Below are positions 1-8,106 of a DNA stretch of 61,414 nt, piece by piece (within the stretch, counting starts at the first letter, position 1; each line of letters begins with the position of its first letter). Made by a program: the position numbers and the translations under genes. Origin of the DNA: Chthoniobacterales bacterium (lineage in GTDB: Bacteria > Verrucomicrobiota > Verrucomicrobiia > Chthoniobacterales > UBA10450); the NCBI GenBank assembly GCA_013815325.1, contig JACDGM010000007.1, forward strand, positions 1 through 61,414, given 5' to 3'. The notes beneath the pieces were generated by a model. It had not been told where the DNA came from. It did no database searches and saw nothing but the letters and a program-made list of their open reading frames with translations.

Positions 1-348
1 GGGAAGACGTTGGGTCGCACCAAATCGCGAGCTTATCGCGGGGTGGCGATCAGACGGGCGCACGGGTTGGAGCGGGCCGAGCAGTGGCTGCGAGAGGGAT
101 TGGCGGCAGCGGGATTAAACGAGCCAGAACTCGGGGCCACTCCCGGGAGCAATCCGAGGAAGGTCGCTTTGGCCCGGCTATTGTGGCGGGGCACGACGGT
201 TTCGCAAGTAAGGTTGGCGGAACATCTGGCAATGCGCAGTGCGGCCTACGTTAGTCAGCAACTGAGGCGCGTTGGGACGGAACCAATCAAAGGGAGAGTG
301 CCCAAGAGATTGGCGTCTTTCGTGGAGCAAGCGATGAATCGAGGCTAG
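1..348 (+). pseudogene. C-terminal part of a REP-associated Y1-type transposase (enters from left edge)
   Basis: The frame is open to the first base, so the start lies outside the window. The visible 115 or so residues lack the HUH/Tyr catalytic core. They match in style the helical tail of REP-associated transposases of Verrucomicrobiota and relatives: a K-V-A-L-A-R-L-L-W-R-G-T-T segment, then a helix-turn-helix-like stretch ending in S-Q-Q-L-R-R. The gene ends at TAG 346-348, and short GC-rich repeats containing CTGACCCC follow immediately, as expected for the recognition repeats of such elements. The family is assigned from pattern memory, not a search. Whether the full gene is intact cannot be judged from here. 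Confidence 0.5.
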
Positions 349-376
349 AGGCAGTCAAGATTTGCACACTGACCCC
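225..376 (+). repeat. Direct repeat copy 1: 3' end of transposase gene plus flank
   Basis: About 152 bp covering the last 41 codons of the transposase and the segment TTTGCACACTGACCCC. It recurs at 1251-1402 with roughly ten substitutions. The shared right edge at the CTGACCCC motif suggests that the element end, not random duplication, defined the copied segment. Confidence 0.85.
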
Positions 377-791
377 CAATCCCTGACCCCTTTGCGAAGG
401 CGGGGCCCGCTTGTAGCAGATTATTGCGAAGGGATTGATACCAGTCGTTATCTAGATCAGAAGAATGTTCGCAAGGGAGAAGAACGGCTGCAATTAAATG
501 ACGGGCGATGACGTCGAAATTCTGCCCGCGACTTTGCACGAATGCGTCAGCGGATGGGAACTGCGACAGAAGGAATTCTTTTTGGAAGCGCGTTAACTCC
601 GCGTCGCCGTGGCGTGCGAGAGCGAATTTGCGAACTTCAGGCCAAAGATTTCGCTCGATGCGCATTCGCGTCGCCGCGGCGTGGACCTTCTCCTTATTGT
701 GCTGGACGATTATCTCGCGGAGTTCTCCGGCGGTCGGAAAGCCGTACGGACAGCTTGCGCCCGCTCCGAGGATTAACACAGTCCTGCGCAT
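345..791 (-). pseudogene. SIR2-like fold protein, 3' truncated
   Basis: Starting at ATG 791 the product begins MRRTVLILGAGASCPYGFP, the glycine-rich nucleotide-binding opening of SIR2_2-type proteins, many of which belong to anti-phage systems as NAD-depleting or uncharacterised effectors. Only about 125 residues look genuine, up to the motif D-N-D-W-Y-Q-S-L. After that, near position 410, the frame runs into the repeat DNA behind the transposase tail and stops at 345. A full-length family member is usually more than 250 residues, so the gene was probably cut by the transposase-associated segment. A start 14 codons upstream (833) is possible but lacks family-like sequence. Confidence 0.6.
361..380. 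repeat. 20-bp inverted repeat, left arm (TTTGCACACTGACCCCCAAT)
   Basis: The reverse complement of this exact 20-mer is at 1161-1180, so the two arms bracket about 780 bp of otherwise geneless DNA and the broken end of the SIR2-like gene. It sits directly after the transposase tail and is a candidate REP-like end for that transposase. Confidence 0.8.
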
Positions 792-1160
792 TGTCTCAAT
801 CCTAGCGGCACGAGGTTCGCGGTCTACCACCAACTACCGTCACCGCGCACAATCTCCGTGGCGACGGATGGTTGCCCAAGATGACGACGACGATTTAATT
901 TGTGCTGTGTCGGCCTATTTGGTGTCGAACCGCCAACTGTTCAAAAATGGCACGCGTGCAGAGGCAATTCCGCATGCAACCGCACTTTATTCTGCACATG
1001 TGTCCCGCGCGGCATTCTCGCGAAAAGCTCGATGAGCCGGTTTCCGGGATTCAAGCGATGCCAAAACGCGCTCATGTGAAAAGCATGCCCGTCTGGCGAT
1101 ACCATCAGGGGTGCAAGTAGGGTTCCGGCTGATGCGAAATCGAGCTCGGGGAAGAAGGGA

Positions 1161-3964: not shown

Positions 3965-4072
3965 GTTGGCGACGATACCCGCTGCACTGTGCGACGGACA
4001 AGCCTCATGCACCGCACCGCCGCTCTGCCTCTCTTCACGACGATGCTGGACTGCGGCCTTCGTCGGTTCTTT

Positions 4073-4319
4073 AGAAGTGCGCGCCCAGGTATTCCCACAT
4101 CTGGTGATGCCAGTAGGGCCAATCGTGCCCGCCCTTCGGGCCCCAGTCGTCTAGATGATGAGCGATCCCACGGCATGCGAGCACGGCGGACATTTGGTAG
4201 GTCGGGCCGGGCACTTCCCATGGGCCACAGCCGGTCGCGAGGTGGATGTCGCAGCTCGCTAACTGGTGGAGAAACCAGAGGTTCGTTTTGGTTGGCCATA
4301 CAGCCGACCGGGTTGTTGA
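4073..4319 (-). pseudogene. Orphan 3' end of an esterase gene
   Basis: About 247 bp encode the C-terminal segment of a putative esterase, including A-S-C-D-I-H-L-A-T-G-C-G-P-W-E-V and ending W-P-Y-W-H-H-Q-M-W-E-Y-L-G-A-H-F with a stop. It is about 85-90% identical to the 3' end of the esterase gene at 7376-8106. No esterase N-terminus precedes it: similarity stops abruptly near 4319. Here the frame is intact across the site where the full-length copy has lost one G. Confidence 0.8.
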
Positions 4320-4557
4320 CATTCCGCTTTATGTGCGATCGCGCGTGGTAGGCGCTCGCTGCGGGGAGATGCACTTGGTTGCGCGCGCGAGGCGCTACAA
4401 AGTGAATCGGCCGCCGTACGTGCACGCGCCCAAAGCTATTGGCCAGTCAGAAATTCAGCATTGAATTAAGACCAAACTCAGATCGCAGCCGCGGACGCCT
4501 GAGTCTTTACTGCGTGCCGTGATAATGCTAGTTACTCGTCTCAAGAGGAAGTAGATC

Positions 4558-6993
4558 ATGCCTGAAAAAAATCCCCCAATCGATGTTCCGTCGCGCGGGA
4601 TTCCTGGTGAGCAGCCGCTGTTTCCTCCCAATTTCCAGCGCCTGAGCTCTCATGTCGATTGGCGCCGCACGTGGACGCACATTGTCGCCGGAAAATTTTC
4701 CAAGTCTGGATTTAGCGGTCTTCTCTTCTACGAACAAAGCACTGGTTACGCGGAGTTTTACGAGACGAATGGATCCGGCCAGATCGAGTTCCTACAGGGT
4801 CACACGGGCTGGCGGACGAGTTGGACGCACATCATTTCCGGCGCTTTCTACGGGGCTGAACGGACGGGTTTGCTCTTCTATGACCAACAAGCTGGGTTCG
4901 CCGCAGTTTACGATACAGATGGTCTAGGCAACCTGGTGTTTCCGCCCCGCGAGTACTCTGGCTGGCGCCCATCTTGGACACACATCACGACCATCCGTTT
5001 ACCGGAAGCTGCGCAGAACCGCGATTTTTCAGCTATTCTCCTCTACGACCAGGCAGCAGGTCATGGTGAGATCCACCAGTGCGACGGCGAGGGAGGATTA
5101 AGTCTCATCCGAGAGGAGGATGGCTGGCGAACTAGCTGGACCCACGTAGTCGGAGACTCATTCTGCGGGACCGGAGTGTTGTTCTATGAGCAGCCGACGT
5201 CTCACGGTGAGGTCTATATGGTTACGGGAGACGACGACTCCGGCTTTGGGTTCGAACAAGGGGCGGAAAAGGAGAACCTACCGCCCGCAACCCACATCAC
5301 TCCGGGCAATTTTGGATGGATGGATTCAAGTTTTGTTTTCTACGATCGCCGGACTGGTCGAGGAACATTTGTGTTTTACAACCCTCCGCCCGATCCATCC
5401 TCTGGAGCCGGGCAAGAGGGATCCATTCTTTGCGATCCCAATGATAACACAGTGAAATGGGAGAGTTACGACGATTGGCGAAGCACTTGGGACGTCATCG
5501 TTCCTGGAAACTTCTGGGAGCCCGACCCCGAGTATGTCAAATTTCAGAACGGATTCACAGACCTGCTCTTTTACGAAGGCGCGGGTGGTTATGGAGAATT
5601 CTACTTGCACGAACCATTTGAAGCGATTCCCGCTGAAGATCTCGAGGGGTATGTTTCACCCGGAAGCGTAGCTCAAGGGGAGACTATTAGTTTTTATGTG
5701 AACAGCCGGGTCGGTCCGTACACCATTACAGTCTATCGGCAAGATAGTGAGCAAACGCCGATAACTACCGTCCAAGACATCCGTCAGTTTCCGCAACCCT
5801 TCCCGATTCAACGGTTAGATTATCGCGATGGGCCGGCCTGGCCTGTTGTGGCAGAGTTTACAATCCCGCGCAATTGGCGAAGCGGCTTGTACTTGGCCCG
5901 AGTAGAGGCAAGTGTCGCCGAAACCAGCGTCTTAGATATCCCGTTTGTGGTGCGGTGTGAAACTCCGGGGAGTCAGTCACGAATTCTTCTTTGCATCCCC
6001 GACGCTACTTGGGCGGCGTATAACTTCTGGGGAGGTAGAAGTCTGTATGGTTTCACCACCGGAGGATTCTTTTTCTGGTCATTTGGTCCTTCGTTAGATC
6101 CATACCGAGGGGACTATCAAATTCCGAGGGCCTTCCGCGTGGCCTTAGCCAGGCCCTATCGAGAAGCGAGCGGTCTTCCTAAGTGGCAGCAATGGGAGGT
6201 GCCGTTGATTCGATGGCTGGCGCGGCAGGGGATTGACGTGGAACTGTGCACATCTACTGATCTGCACAAAGATCAGGCTAATCACACGGACTTGTTGAAA
6301 AGGTATAGCCTGCTCGTGAGCGTGGGGCACGACGAATACTGGTCAAAAGGAATGCGCGACAATGTGGAAGGTTTTGCTTCCAAGGGAGGGAATGTCGTTT
6401 TCCTAAGCGCTAATGTCTCATGGTTTCAGGTTCGTTTCGATCTCAACGTGCAAAGACAAATCTGCTACAAAGACGCACGGTTTGATCCGTACAATGCGAC
6501 CGACTTCGATGCCGGGACGCCCGAACTCGTTACAGTAAACTGGTACGACAAGCCGGTCTGTAGAGCTGAAACAGCCATGACCGGTGTCAGCTACTTCGAA
6601 GAGATGAATGGTTGGCCTGAGTACATCATCCGCGATCGAGATTCGTGGGTATTCCAAAACGTGGCTTACAGCCGTTTTGGTCTCTACACTATAACGGGAG
6701 ACCCGATGCCGAGGTCAGTCGTGGGATATGAGACGGATCATCTGCAATCATCGCAAGAAGAGTGCAAACCAAACTCACCTCCGAACTTCCATACGCTGGC
6801 AGAAGTTCCTGCCGCCAGCGGTGATTTTACAGCCCCAAACCCTGAGGTCGCCGCAACCATGGGAATTTTCACCAAAGGCAAGGGGCAGGTTCTCACCGTG
6901 GGCACCATTAACTGGTCACTGGGGCTGAGTCAGGATGGTGAGTTCACCGAAATTGACCAGATCACCCTTAACATTTTCACGCAGCTAGGCTGA
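4558..6993 (+). CDS. N,N-dimethylformamidase beta-subunit-like protein with N-terminal W-rich repeats
   Basis: The product has 811 residues. Residues 30-360 hold about six repeats of roughly 46 residues, each with a W-x-x-S/T-W-T-H-I motif followed by L-L-F-Y-D/E and G-x-x-E-F/V-Y, suggesting a beta-propeller or lectin-like fold. Residues 365-470 look like a beta-sandwich. The C-terminal 340 residues match the C-terminal domain of the DMFase large subunit: I-L-L-C-I-P-D-A-T-W-A-A-Y-N, G-H-D-E-Y-W-S, G-G-N-V-V-F-L-S-A-N. Known enzymes of this kind hydrolyse dimethylformamide using iron and a small subunit; none is nearby, so the substrate is unknown. A purine-rich ribosome site (GAGGAAG) precedes ATG 4558. 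No signal peptide is evident. Confidence 0.75.
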   Translation: MPEKNPPIDVPSRGIPGEQPLFPPNFQRLSSHVDWRRTWTHIVAGKFSKSGFSGLLFYEQSTGYAEFYETNGSGQIEFLQGHTGWRTSWTHIISGAFYGAERTGLLFYDQQAGFAAVYDTDGLGNLVFPPREYSGWRPSWTHITTIRLPEAAQNRDFSAILLYDQAAGHGEIHQCDGEGGLSLIREEDGWRTSWTHVVGDSFCGTGVLFYEQPTSHGEVYMVTGDDDSGFGFEQGAEKENLPPATHITPGNFGWMDSSFVFYDRRTGRGTFVFYNPPPDPSSGAGQEGSILCDPNDNTVKWESYDDWRSTWDVIVPGNFWEPDPEYVKFQNGFTDLLFYEGAGGYGEFYLHEPFEAIPAEDLEGYVSPGSVAQGETISFYVNSRVGPYTITVYRQDSEQTPITTVQDIRQFPQPFPIQRLDYRDGPAWPVVAEFTIPRNWRSGLYLARVEASVAETSVLDIPFVVRCETPGSQSRILLCIPDATWAAYNFWGGRSLYGFTTGGFFFWSFGPSLDPYRGDYQIPRAFRVALARPYREASGLPKWQQWEVPLIRWLARQGIDVELCTSTDLHKDQANHTDLLKRYSLLVSVGHDEYWSKGMRDNVEGFASKGGNVVFLSANVSWFQVRFDLNVQRQICYKDARFDPYNATDFDAGTPELVTVNWYDKPVCRAETAMTGVSYFEEMNGWPEYIIRDRDSWVFQNVAYSRFGLYTITGDPMPRSVVGYETDHLQSSQEECKPNSPPNFHTLAEVPAASGDFTAPNPEVAATMGIFTKGKGQVLTVGTINWSLGLSQDGEFTEIDQITLNIFTQLG

Positions 6994-7322: not shown

Positions 7323-7375
7323 CGCCGCGCAGCCGTTGCAGTTAGGAAGCGCGGCAACCTCCTACTGTGGAATCT

Positions 7376-8106
7376 CTAAAAGTGCGCGCCCACGTACTCC
7401 CACATCTGGTGATGCCAGTACGGCCATTCGTGTCCGCCCTTTGGCCCCAGTCGTCCAGATGATGAGCAATCCCACGGCTCGCGAGCACGGCGGACATTTG
7501 GTAGGTCGGGCCGGGCACTTCCCACGGGCCGCAGCCGGTCGCGAGGTGGATGTCGCAGCTCGCTAACTGGTGGAGAAACCAAGGATCGTTCTGGTTAGCC
7601 ATATAGTCGACCGGGTTATTGAAGTAGAAGTTGTCGTCGTACATCCCGTCCATCGAGTCCCGCATGTCGTAGACGCCGGAGAGCGCGTAGCAGCGCTTTA
7701 CGCGGTCGGGATGCTTAAAGAGGGTGTTGGCGGCGTGGTAGGCACCGAGCGATGCGCCGTAGGTCGTGATCGGAATGCCAGGGGTCTGGCACTGGGAGTC
7801 GATGAAGGGGAAGACTTCGCTGGCGACATAGTCGTCGTACTGCGCCTGCATCCAGCTCCGATGGAAGGGGTGCGCTCCTTTGTTTTGGAAGGAATCGTTT
7901 TGCACGCCGTTAATGGAGAAGATGCGGAGGCGGCCCTCGTCGAGGTAGGGGCCGAGGGTGCGGATCATGCCTTGGCCTTCCTGTTCCCATTCGTCGCCGC
8001 CGCTCGTCGGGAAGGCGAGGATGGGCATCCCGTAATGGCCGTAAACAGCGACGCCCATGTCGCGATTGAGGCGGTGTGAGTACCAACGCTGATAGTCGCG
8101 GTGCAT
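7376..8106 (-). pseudogene. Putative esterase (alpha/beta hydrolase), single-base frameshift near its 3' end
   Basis: The product begins MHRDYQRWYSHRLNRDMGV and carries the nucleophile elbow G-A-S-L-G (Ser near residue 117) in the context I-T-T-Y-G-A-S-L-G-A-Y-H-A, as in esterase D/PF00756-like proteins. In the original frame it runs to 7342 with an alien tail. A one-base shift near 7444-7450 restores the family-like ending G-P-K-G-G-H-E-W-P-Y-W-H-H-Q-M-W-E-Y with a stop at 7376. The partial paralogue at 4073-4319 has one more G at this spot (GGGCCCC versus GGCCCC), which pinpoints the lesion. The catalytic His would lie in G-H-E-W. It could be a true mutation or a homopolymer error. Confidence 0.75.

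What the first reader, a model, noticed from the sequence alone, without database searches (positions are those of the whole stretch)
4558..6993. DMFase-like C-terminal domain fused to six W-rich repeats
The repeats (W-x-x-S/T-W-T-H-I ... L-L-F-Y-D ... G-x-x-E-F-Y) look like a propeller or carbohydrate-binding array and are joined to an amidohydrolase-like domain known from dimethylformamidase. No small subunit is near. The fusion may act on a polymer or cell-surface substrate rather than DMF.
Basis: partly seen in the sequence, partly recalled or inferred. Interest (0 to 1): 0.55.

Follow-up and report, generated by a model that had tools for sequence, protein, structure and literature searches.

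The report
Sugar-binding-type propeller fused to iron amidase
A single bacterial gene joins a six-bladed propeller that looks like a sugar-binding (lectin) domain to a rare iron-dependent amide-cutting enzyme domain, suggesting an enzyme that is guided to a sugar polymer, although this has not been shown experimentally.

Summary
Window 4558-6993 (+) is one 811-residue gene with a ribosome-binding site. Residues 26-352 hold six ~50-residue W-rich units. With an alignment of four natural relatives, AlphaFold2 folds them as a closed six-bladed beta-propeller (pLDDT 76, pTM 0.79). Its best PDB match, well above all others, is the propeller of UmbA4, a Streptomyces lectin that binds teichuronic acid (Z 22.7; next 17.7). 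Residues 359-811 are an Ig-like domain plus a DMFA2_C domain (Pfam E=1.4e-74). The iron ligands and catalytic residues of dimethylformamidase are all present: Y488, Y497, E593, H591 and N619. The pentraxin insert and the small subunit are absent, so this is not a DMFase proper. No other gene found has this exact fusion, but the family has gained propeller-type modules at least twice. Best reading: a lectin-guided iron amidohydrolase acting on an N-acylated glycan or similar ligand. The architecture is well supported; the substrate is inferred. A missing signal peptide argues against simple secretion. The gene sits between two direct copies of a neighbouring esterase's 3' end, is absent from four congeners and has low GC3, so it was probably acquired. 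New variant of a known kind.

The parts
4545..4551 (+). Shine-Dalgarno-like GAGGAAG, 6 nt before the ATG
   Evidence: read in the sequence
4558..6993 (+). whole gene, 811 aa (P0001): N-terminal six-bladed propeller + Ig-like domain + DMFA2_C iron amidohydrolase domain
4633..5613 (+). residues 26-352: six-bladed beta-propeller; strand 26-32 is placed to close the last blade (velcro)
   Evidence: AlphaFold2 on alignment A5, pLDDT 76.3, pTM 0.79; Foldseek/VIA-align to propellers
4654..4806 (+). repeat unit 1 (residues 33-83)
4807..4959 (+). repeat unit 2 (residues 84-134)
4960..5121 (+). repeat unit 3 (residues 135-188)
5122..5271 (+). repeat unit 4 (residues 189-238)
5272..5472 (+). repeat unit 5 (residues 239-305), degenerate, no W-x-x-x-W
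5473..5613 (+). repeat unit 6 (residues 306-352)
5632..5967 (+). residues 359-470: Ig-like domain, contiguous here (split by a pentraxin domain in DMFase); boundary approximate
   Evidence: profile A4 aligns to DMFase residues 5-41 and 336 onward; domain limits of DMFase from PMC7686228
5968..6990 (+). residues 471-811: ThuA-like alpha/beta/alpha catalytic domain with iron centre (fold inferred from homology)
6019..6021 (+). Y488, equivalent of iron ligand Y399 of DMFase
6046..6048 (+). Y497, equivalent of iron ligand Y440 of DMFase
   Evidence: Y440 located in the PDB sequence by the 6lvd mutant
6328..6330 (+). H591, equivalent of catalytic H519
6334..6336 (+). E593, equivalent of iron ligand E521
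   Evidence: E521 located by the 6lve mutant
6412..6414 (+). N619, equivalent of active-site N547
4068..4319 (-). partial copy of the 3' end of the neighbouring esterase gene (direct repeat with 7373-7622, 91.3% over 252 bp)
7342..8106 (-). neighbouring esterase gene (Pfam Esterase PF00756), whose 3' end is the other copy of the direct repeat

Best explanation
One polypeptide carries an N-terminal six-bladed, lectin-type beta-propeller (probably a divergent FG-GAP-type repeat domain without the calcium-loop acids) and a C-terminal DMFase-type mononuclear Fe(III) amidohydrolase. Shown by sequence and modelling: the fusion, the six-blade closed propeller and the conserved iron-site residues. Inferred: iron held by Y488, Y497 and E593 activates water with help from H591 to hydrolyse an amide bond; the propeller binds a glycan or similarly repetitive ligand through pockets on or between its blades and so brings the amide (most likely an N-acyl group of an amino sugar or conjugate) to the catalytic domain. 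It would take the role that the pentraxin/ConA-like domain has in DMFase and that tachylectin-type domains have in parallel fusions. The gene was probably acquired recently as a cargo between duplicated esterase ends.
For: Pfam DMFA2_C E=1.4e-74. Profile of the domain to DMFase 6lvb E=3e-35 and to N-acetyl-(R)-beta-phenylalanine acylase 8huy E=1.5e-35. Ligand columns across 27 relatives: Y399 27 of 27, Y440 26 of 27, H519 27 of 27, E521 27 of 27, N547 26 of 27, all present in P0001. Propeller model pLDDT 76.3, pTM 0.79 with five sequences; six F-Y units in each of 5 of 5 proteins (P0001 also gives two extra pattern matches, LVFP and FVFYN). VIA-align: UmbA4 9oee_A Z 22.7, rmsd 2.9, 280 aligned; next Z 17.7. 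The UmbA4 propeller is a lectin for teichuronic acid, a polymer of N-acetylated sugars (passages and section 12 of PMC13274773). FG-GAP-type GW repeats match UmbA4, PVL and Photorhabdus lectins by sequence. Parallel fusions: tachylectin + DMFA2_C in L004 (Tachylectin 3.6e-33, DMFA2_C 1.7e-69); C-terminal propeller-like repeats in L037 and L038; ConA-like domain in DMFase and L015. A stand-alone DMFA2_C gene lies among glycosyltransferase, nucleotide-sugar dehydrogenase and epimerase genes in Streptomyces microflavus.
Against: No signal peptide: highest 13-residue hydropathy in the first 45 residues is -0.16, against 2.25-2.57 in the Sec-type relatives L007 and L039, so reaching an external polymer is unexplained. 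P0001 itself has no Pfam FG-GAP match, and hhalign of its repeats against FG-GAP-type repeats was weak (p 0.072). The profile A5 finds no PDB sequence, so the UmbA4 link is by fold only, at 12% identity. Sugar-contact residues were not mapped. No carbohydrate genes flank P0001: neighbours with a Pfam match are EcsC, DUF1801 and an esterase. The catalytic domain itself was not modelled.
Confidence: 0.5

Rival explanations
1. An intracellular N-acyl amino acid or peptide amidase: the enzyme domain works like N-acetyl-(R)-beta-phenylalanine acylase and the propeller binds a protein or peptide partner or serves oligomerisation, not a glycan.
For: Acylase 8huy is as close as DMFase (E=1.5e-35 and 3e-35). 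No signal peptide. Many propellers in the PDB lists are protein-binding. The Embleya relative L038 lies next to an ORF that looks like an NRPS adenylation domain (by inspection).
Against: The best fold match stands 5 Z units above the rest and is a glycan-binding lectin; accessory domains elsewhere in the family are lectin-type (tachylectin, ConA-like).
Confidence: 0.25
2. A DMF or small-formamide hydrolase in which the propeller merely replaces the pentraxin and small subunit as a structural prop.
For: All DMFase iron and catalytic residues are kept.
Against: No small subunit homologue in the genome, which the Paracoccus DMFase needs for activity (PMC7686228); on the tree P0001 lies within a starred branch of 24 rows (99/99) that excludes DMFase (DMFase is a long branch); flanking genes show no DMF pathway.
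Confidence: 0.12
3. A decaying or inactive acquired gene: cargo left by an integration event, with a divergent catalytic domain (S696 where 25 of 27 relatives have H; an insert of about 19 residues after Y497).
For: Direct repeats flank it; lower GC3 (0.56-0.58 against 0.67-0.75 in six other ORFs); absent from 4 of 4 congeners; divergent columns.
Against: The frame is intact over 811 codons and all iron-site residues are kept; DMFase also has S at the 696 column.
Confidence: 0.08

Closest known systems
N,N-dimethylformamidase large subunit (DmfA2; PDB 6lvb; Paracoccus)
   Same: Ig-like + ThuA-like iron domain; Y399, Y440, E521, H519, N547 all have counterparts
   Different: DMFase has a pentraxin domain inserted in the Ig-like domain and needs a small subunit; here a separate N-terminal propeller and no small subunit
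N-acetyl-(R)-beta-phenylalanine acylase (PDB 8huy, 8i5a)
   Same: same catalytic domain family, as close as DMFase by profile; one kind of chain listed
   Different: no sequence match to the propeller; its matched stretches are split (9-45 and 329-747) as in DMFase, so it has an insert in the Ig-like domain
UmbA4 propeller lectin of Streptomyces umbrella particles (PDB 9oee)
   Same: six-bladed propeller, best fold match, Z 22.7 over 280 residues
   Different: 12% identity; fused to trypsin-like and bulb-lectin domains, not to an amidohydrolase; blades conserve the Ca-type loops, which P0001 lacks
Tachylectin-DMFA2_C protein L004 (genome G056, same order)
   Same: N-terminal W-rich lectin-type propeller repeats in front of DMFA2_C
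   Different: Tachylectin family (PF14517) repeats, not the P0001 type; separate branch of the tree
W-[ST]-[HQ]-I...LLFYD repeat proteins L047, L048, L050, L052
   Same: same repeats, six units, 26-42% identical to P0001 in alignment A5
   Different: followed by a HExxHxxxxxH metallopeptidase-like part (L047) or a tail without DMFA2_C match; no DMFA2_C match in these four genomes

Membership tests
DMFA2_C domain family (PF20254) | passes the curated Pfam score | tested here: met
   252.2 bits against 27
DMFA2_C domain family (PF20254) | iron ligands two Tyr + Glu, catalytic His, active-site Asn | tested here: met
   Y488, Y497, E593, H591, N619 align with Y399, Y440, E521, H519, N547; at sequence level only
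DMFA2_C domain family (PF20254) | ThuA-like alpha/beta/alpha fold | tested here: inconclusive
   only a single-sequence AlphaFold2 model of the whole protein was made, pLDDT 34.7; fold inferred from homology
N,N-dimethylformamidase (DMFase) | small subunit (DmfA1) | tested here: not met
   DmfA1 of pAMI2 against the own genome: best E 0.037 over 35 residues with 2 stops
N,N-dimethylformamidase (DMFase) | pentraxin/ConA-like domain inserted in the Ig-like domain | tested here: not met
   Ig-like part contiguous at about 359-470; no Laminin_G match in P0001 while DMFase has one
N,N-dimethylformamidase (DMFase) | hydrolysis of DMF | not testable with these tools
   needs the purified enzyme
Beta-propeller lectins (UmbA4 / PVL / PLL type) | closed propeller of W-rich ~50-residue blades | tested here: met
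   model with 6 blades, Z 22.7 to UmbA4, six units in 5 of 5 homologues
Beta-propeller lectins (UmbA4 / PVL / PLL type) | binds carbohydrate | not testable with these tools
   needs glycan binding assays
FG-GAP repeats (PF01839, PF13517) | passes the Pfam score | tested here: not met
   no FG-GAP match for P0001 up to E=1; relative L048 23.8 bits against 26.9
FG-GAP repeats (PF01839, PF13517) | calcium loop DxDxDGxxD | tested here: not met
   0 in P0001 and in the four relatives; 4 in FG-GAP-type protein L055 with a slightly looser pattern
FG-GAP repeats (PF01839, PF13517) | distant homology of the repeat | tested here: inconclusive
   A5 profile reaches proteins in 4 of 383 other genomes at E 1e-7 to 3e-5; 3 of the 4 were inspected and are FG-GAP-type; hhalign p 0.072 in the same register
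Tachylectin (PF14517) | Pfam match | tested here: not met
   no match in P0001 up to E=1, while L004 matches at 3.6e-33

The most novel reading that the evidence does not exclude
A lectin-guided iron N-deacylase: a six-bladed glycan-binding propeller targets a two-Tyr-one-Glu iron amidohydrolase to N-acylated sugars of a cell-wall or capsular polymer. This would be a glycan-modifying enzyme class with a metal site unlike that of the known polysaccharide deacetylases (recalled), possibly used against other bacteria or for recycling of wall polymers.
Probability: 0.25. Interest if true: 0.7.

Novelty: new variant of a known kind. Interest (0 to 1): 0.45.

Why it matters
Only two kinds of DMFA2_C protein turned up with solved structures (DMFase and one acylase), yet the domain is spread through many bacterial lineages (matches in 3 of 57 other related genomes; 15 of 386 other genomes of the phylum sample; 175 plasmid records), mostly with unknown substrates. 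Repeated pairing with lectin-type modules (pentraxin/ConA-like, tachylectin, W-rich propeller, C-terminal propeller-like repeats) suggests that a common natural substrate is a glycan conjugate and that DMF is a late, accidental one. That is directly testable with this protein.

Tried and rejected
Tried without result: the search for related loci of P0001 in genome contigs (0 relatives of 4 pattern matches); repeats alone by tblastn in plasmids and phages (no match); NCBIfam (0 families); repeat profile A1 against PDB sequences (only chance matches) and domain profile A5 (none); hhalign of A1 against tachylectin repeats A3 (p 0.1); DNA patterns of the repeat in viral contigs (0 each); P0002 in viral contigs (no relative); single-sequence AlphaFold2 of P0001 (pLDDT 34.7, not used); fold search in the viral library (generic propellers). 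A4 in viral contigs gave 3 loci (L040-L042) that I did not analyse. The repeat query in 387 genomes of the phylum gave one match besides the own genome, a 731-residue ORF at E=9e-4 that looks like a TonB receptor, taken as chance.

Considered and rejected: that the repeats are the normal N-terminus of the family; that they are tachylectin repeats; that the Pfam PPO1_DWL hint means something (E 0.029 for the whole protein, below its cut-off). In one search I left out rows L017 (partial), L026 (same gene as L016), L019 and L020 (no ORF among the phmmer matches). Of the four other loci I did not see the matched part of L058. PVL, PLL and integrin propellers were not singled out by the fold comparison in the way UmbA4 was; absence from that list excludes nothing.

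Text searches of the held library only: 'DMFA2_C'/'PF20254' 0 papers; dimethylformamidase with propeller 0 and with lectin 0; 'dimethylformamidase beta subunit' 0; phenylalanine acylase with dimethylformamidase 0. Papers: PMC7686228 parts 1-2 of 3 read; PMC13274773 passages and section 12; all others seen as search listings only.

Full report
Observation. The ORF at 4558-6993 (+) encodes 811 residues, with a good ribosome-binding sequence before the ATG. Pfam finds one family above its cut-off, DMFA2_C, at residues 393-792 with E=1.4e-74. The first 355 residues have no family match above a cut-off. Six repeat units are real: most pairwise scores were reached by none of 500 shuffles, and the fifth unit is the weakest. 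A second self-similarity test gave the same answer, with the C-terminal half as a negative control.

The N-terminal domain. A degenerate DNA pattern of the repeat run over the genome-contig collection found 8 stretches, of which 4 lie in true repeat ORFs: L047 (Burkholderiales MAG), L048 (Verrucomicrobia MAG), L050 and L052 (Acidobacteriaceae MAGs). P0001 is 39% identical to L047 over 305 columns and 29% to L052 over 311. Each of the five proteins has six F-Y units (in P0001 the pattern also matches LVFP at 126 and FVFYN at 271, which are not unit centres). L047 and L052 have their W-type and F-Y elements in circularly permuted order, as expected of a closed ring. AlphaFold2 with these five sequences gave pLDDT 76.3 and pTM 0.79: six blades of three to four strands each, with strand 26-32 placed to complete the last blade (the strand-to-blade assignment is my reading of the element list). 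Foldseek finds propellers. VIA-align ranks the UmbA4 propeller first with Z 22.7, rmsd 2.9 and 280 aligned residues; the next is Z 17.7, and the rest of the list sits at 15-17.7. UmbA4's propeller is a lectin that binds teichuronic acid made of N-acetylated sugars, with sites on and between blades (PMC13274773, passages and section 12). UmbA4, PVL and the Photorhabdus lectins share FG-GAP-type GW repeats by sequence. The P0001 repeats look like a divergent branch of the same type: the A5 profile reaches proteins in 4 of 383 other genomes at E 1e-7 to 3e-5, three of them inspected and FG-GAP-type. P0001 itself does not reach any Pfam FG-GAP score, and it and its four relatives lack the calcium loop, so I do not file it under FG-GAP.

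The C-terminal domain. A profile of this domain matches the DMFase large subunit (E=3e-35) and N-acetyl-(R)-beta-phenylalanine acylase (E=1.5e-35) in the PDB; the Y440A and E521A mutant entries locate the ligands in the printed alignments. Aligned with 27 relatives and DMFase, all five key residues are present: Y488=Y399 (27 of 27 relatives have it), Y497=Y440 (26 of 27), H591=H519 (27 of 27), E593=E521 (27 of 27), N619=N547 (26 of 27). In DMFase, loss of Y440, E521 or H519 abolishes activity. The Ig-like domain that DMFase splits around a pentraxin is contiguous here. The small subunit DmfA1 has no homologue in the genome.

Distribution and parallels. Matches to P0001 in 57 related genomes: 3, all in the C-terminal part, none in 4 congeners. 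In a sample of the phylum: 15 of 386 others, all C-terminal. Repeats alone: 1 of 386 others, taken as chance. The four genomes with the repeats have no DMFA2_C match. So the exact fusion was seen once. Parallel fusions exist: L004 is Tachylectin + DMFA2_C; L037 and L038 carry a C-terminal repeat extension that resembles a propeller by inspection, gave no repeat or propeller family in Pfam and in L038 exceeds shuffles (313 against a maximum of 266); L015 and DMFase have a ConA-like domain, and L070 has DUF4082 and Ig-like domains. On a tree of 29 domains, starred branches force at least two changes of the propeller label, L004 lying apart from P0001, L037 and L038 (long branches make the deep part unsure). 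The shared theme is a lectin-type accessory domain.

Context and origin. Neighbours with a Pfam match are EcsC, DUF1801 and an esterase, which give no pathway. P0001 lies between two direct copies (252 bp, 91.3%) of the 3' end of the esterase gene. Congeners G003 and G004 have the esterase but no P0001. GC3 is 0.58 and 0.56 in the two halves against 0.67-0.75 in six other ORFs; the EcsC ORF at 1437-2552 is also low at 0.54. Acquisition by integration at the esterase end is the simplest reading. P0001 has no signal peptide by hydropathy.

Mechanism. Shown: fusion, propeller model, conserved iron-site residues. Inferred: Fe(III)-activated hydrolysis of an amide, with the propeller holding a repetitive glycan-like ligand. 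The choice of an N-acyl glycan rests on the UmbA4 match, on the recurrent lectin-type partners and on one relative inside a sugar-polymer gene cluster in Streptomyces microflavus. The acylase relative shows that the fold handles N-acetyl amides larger than DMF (from the name of the molecule). The absence of a signal peptide is the main difficulty; an intracellular N-acyl substrate is the main rival.

Verdict. It is a new variant of a known kind: a lectin-tethered DMFA2_C enzyme with a propeller type not found on this enzyme elsewhere in what I searched.

Noticed in passing
window 4068-4319 and 7373-7622: Direct repeat of an esterase 3' end flanks the gene; the full esterase copy appears frameshifted near residue 224, since the expected C-terminus reads on in another frame (by inspection), while the partial copy keeps it. 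Congener G004 has a further small remnant about 12 kb from its esterase.
   Followed up: partly
window 220-391 and 1246-1417: A second direct repeat (172 nt, 91%) about 1 kb apart at the left end of the window, which suggests a second duplication scar in the same stretch.
   Followed up: no
window 345-833 (-): ORF beginning with a GAGAS motif like SIR2-type NAD-binding proteins (recalled), but no Pfam match at E 0.01; possibly a fragment.
   Followed up: no
L047 152-1588 (-): The same six-unit propeller precedes a matrixin-like HExxHxxxxxH metallopeptidase part (Peptidase_M10 E=1.3e-4, just under its cut-off), so the propeller may be a mobile targeting module for different enzymes.
   Followed up: partly
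L073 5272-10599 and L072: Very long Rhizobium/Sinorhizobium proteins combine DMFA2_C with DUF4082 and cadherin-like repeats (by annotation and inspection); in L073 a peptidase-domain ABC transporter gene lies downstream, suggesting type I secretion.
   Followed up: no
L071 3995-5383: Stand-alone DMFA2_C gene inside a sugar-polymer biosynthesis cluster on a Streptomyces microflavus plasmid.
   Followed up: no
L037: An 'Acinetobacter baumannii plasmid' of 3.97 Mb in the plasmid collection is probably a mislabelled chromosome.
   Followed up: no
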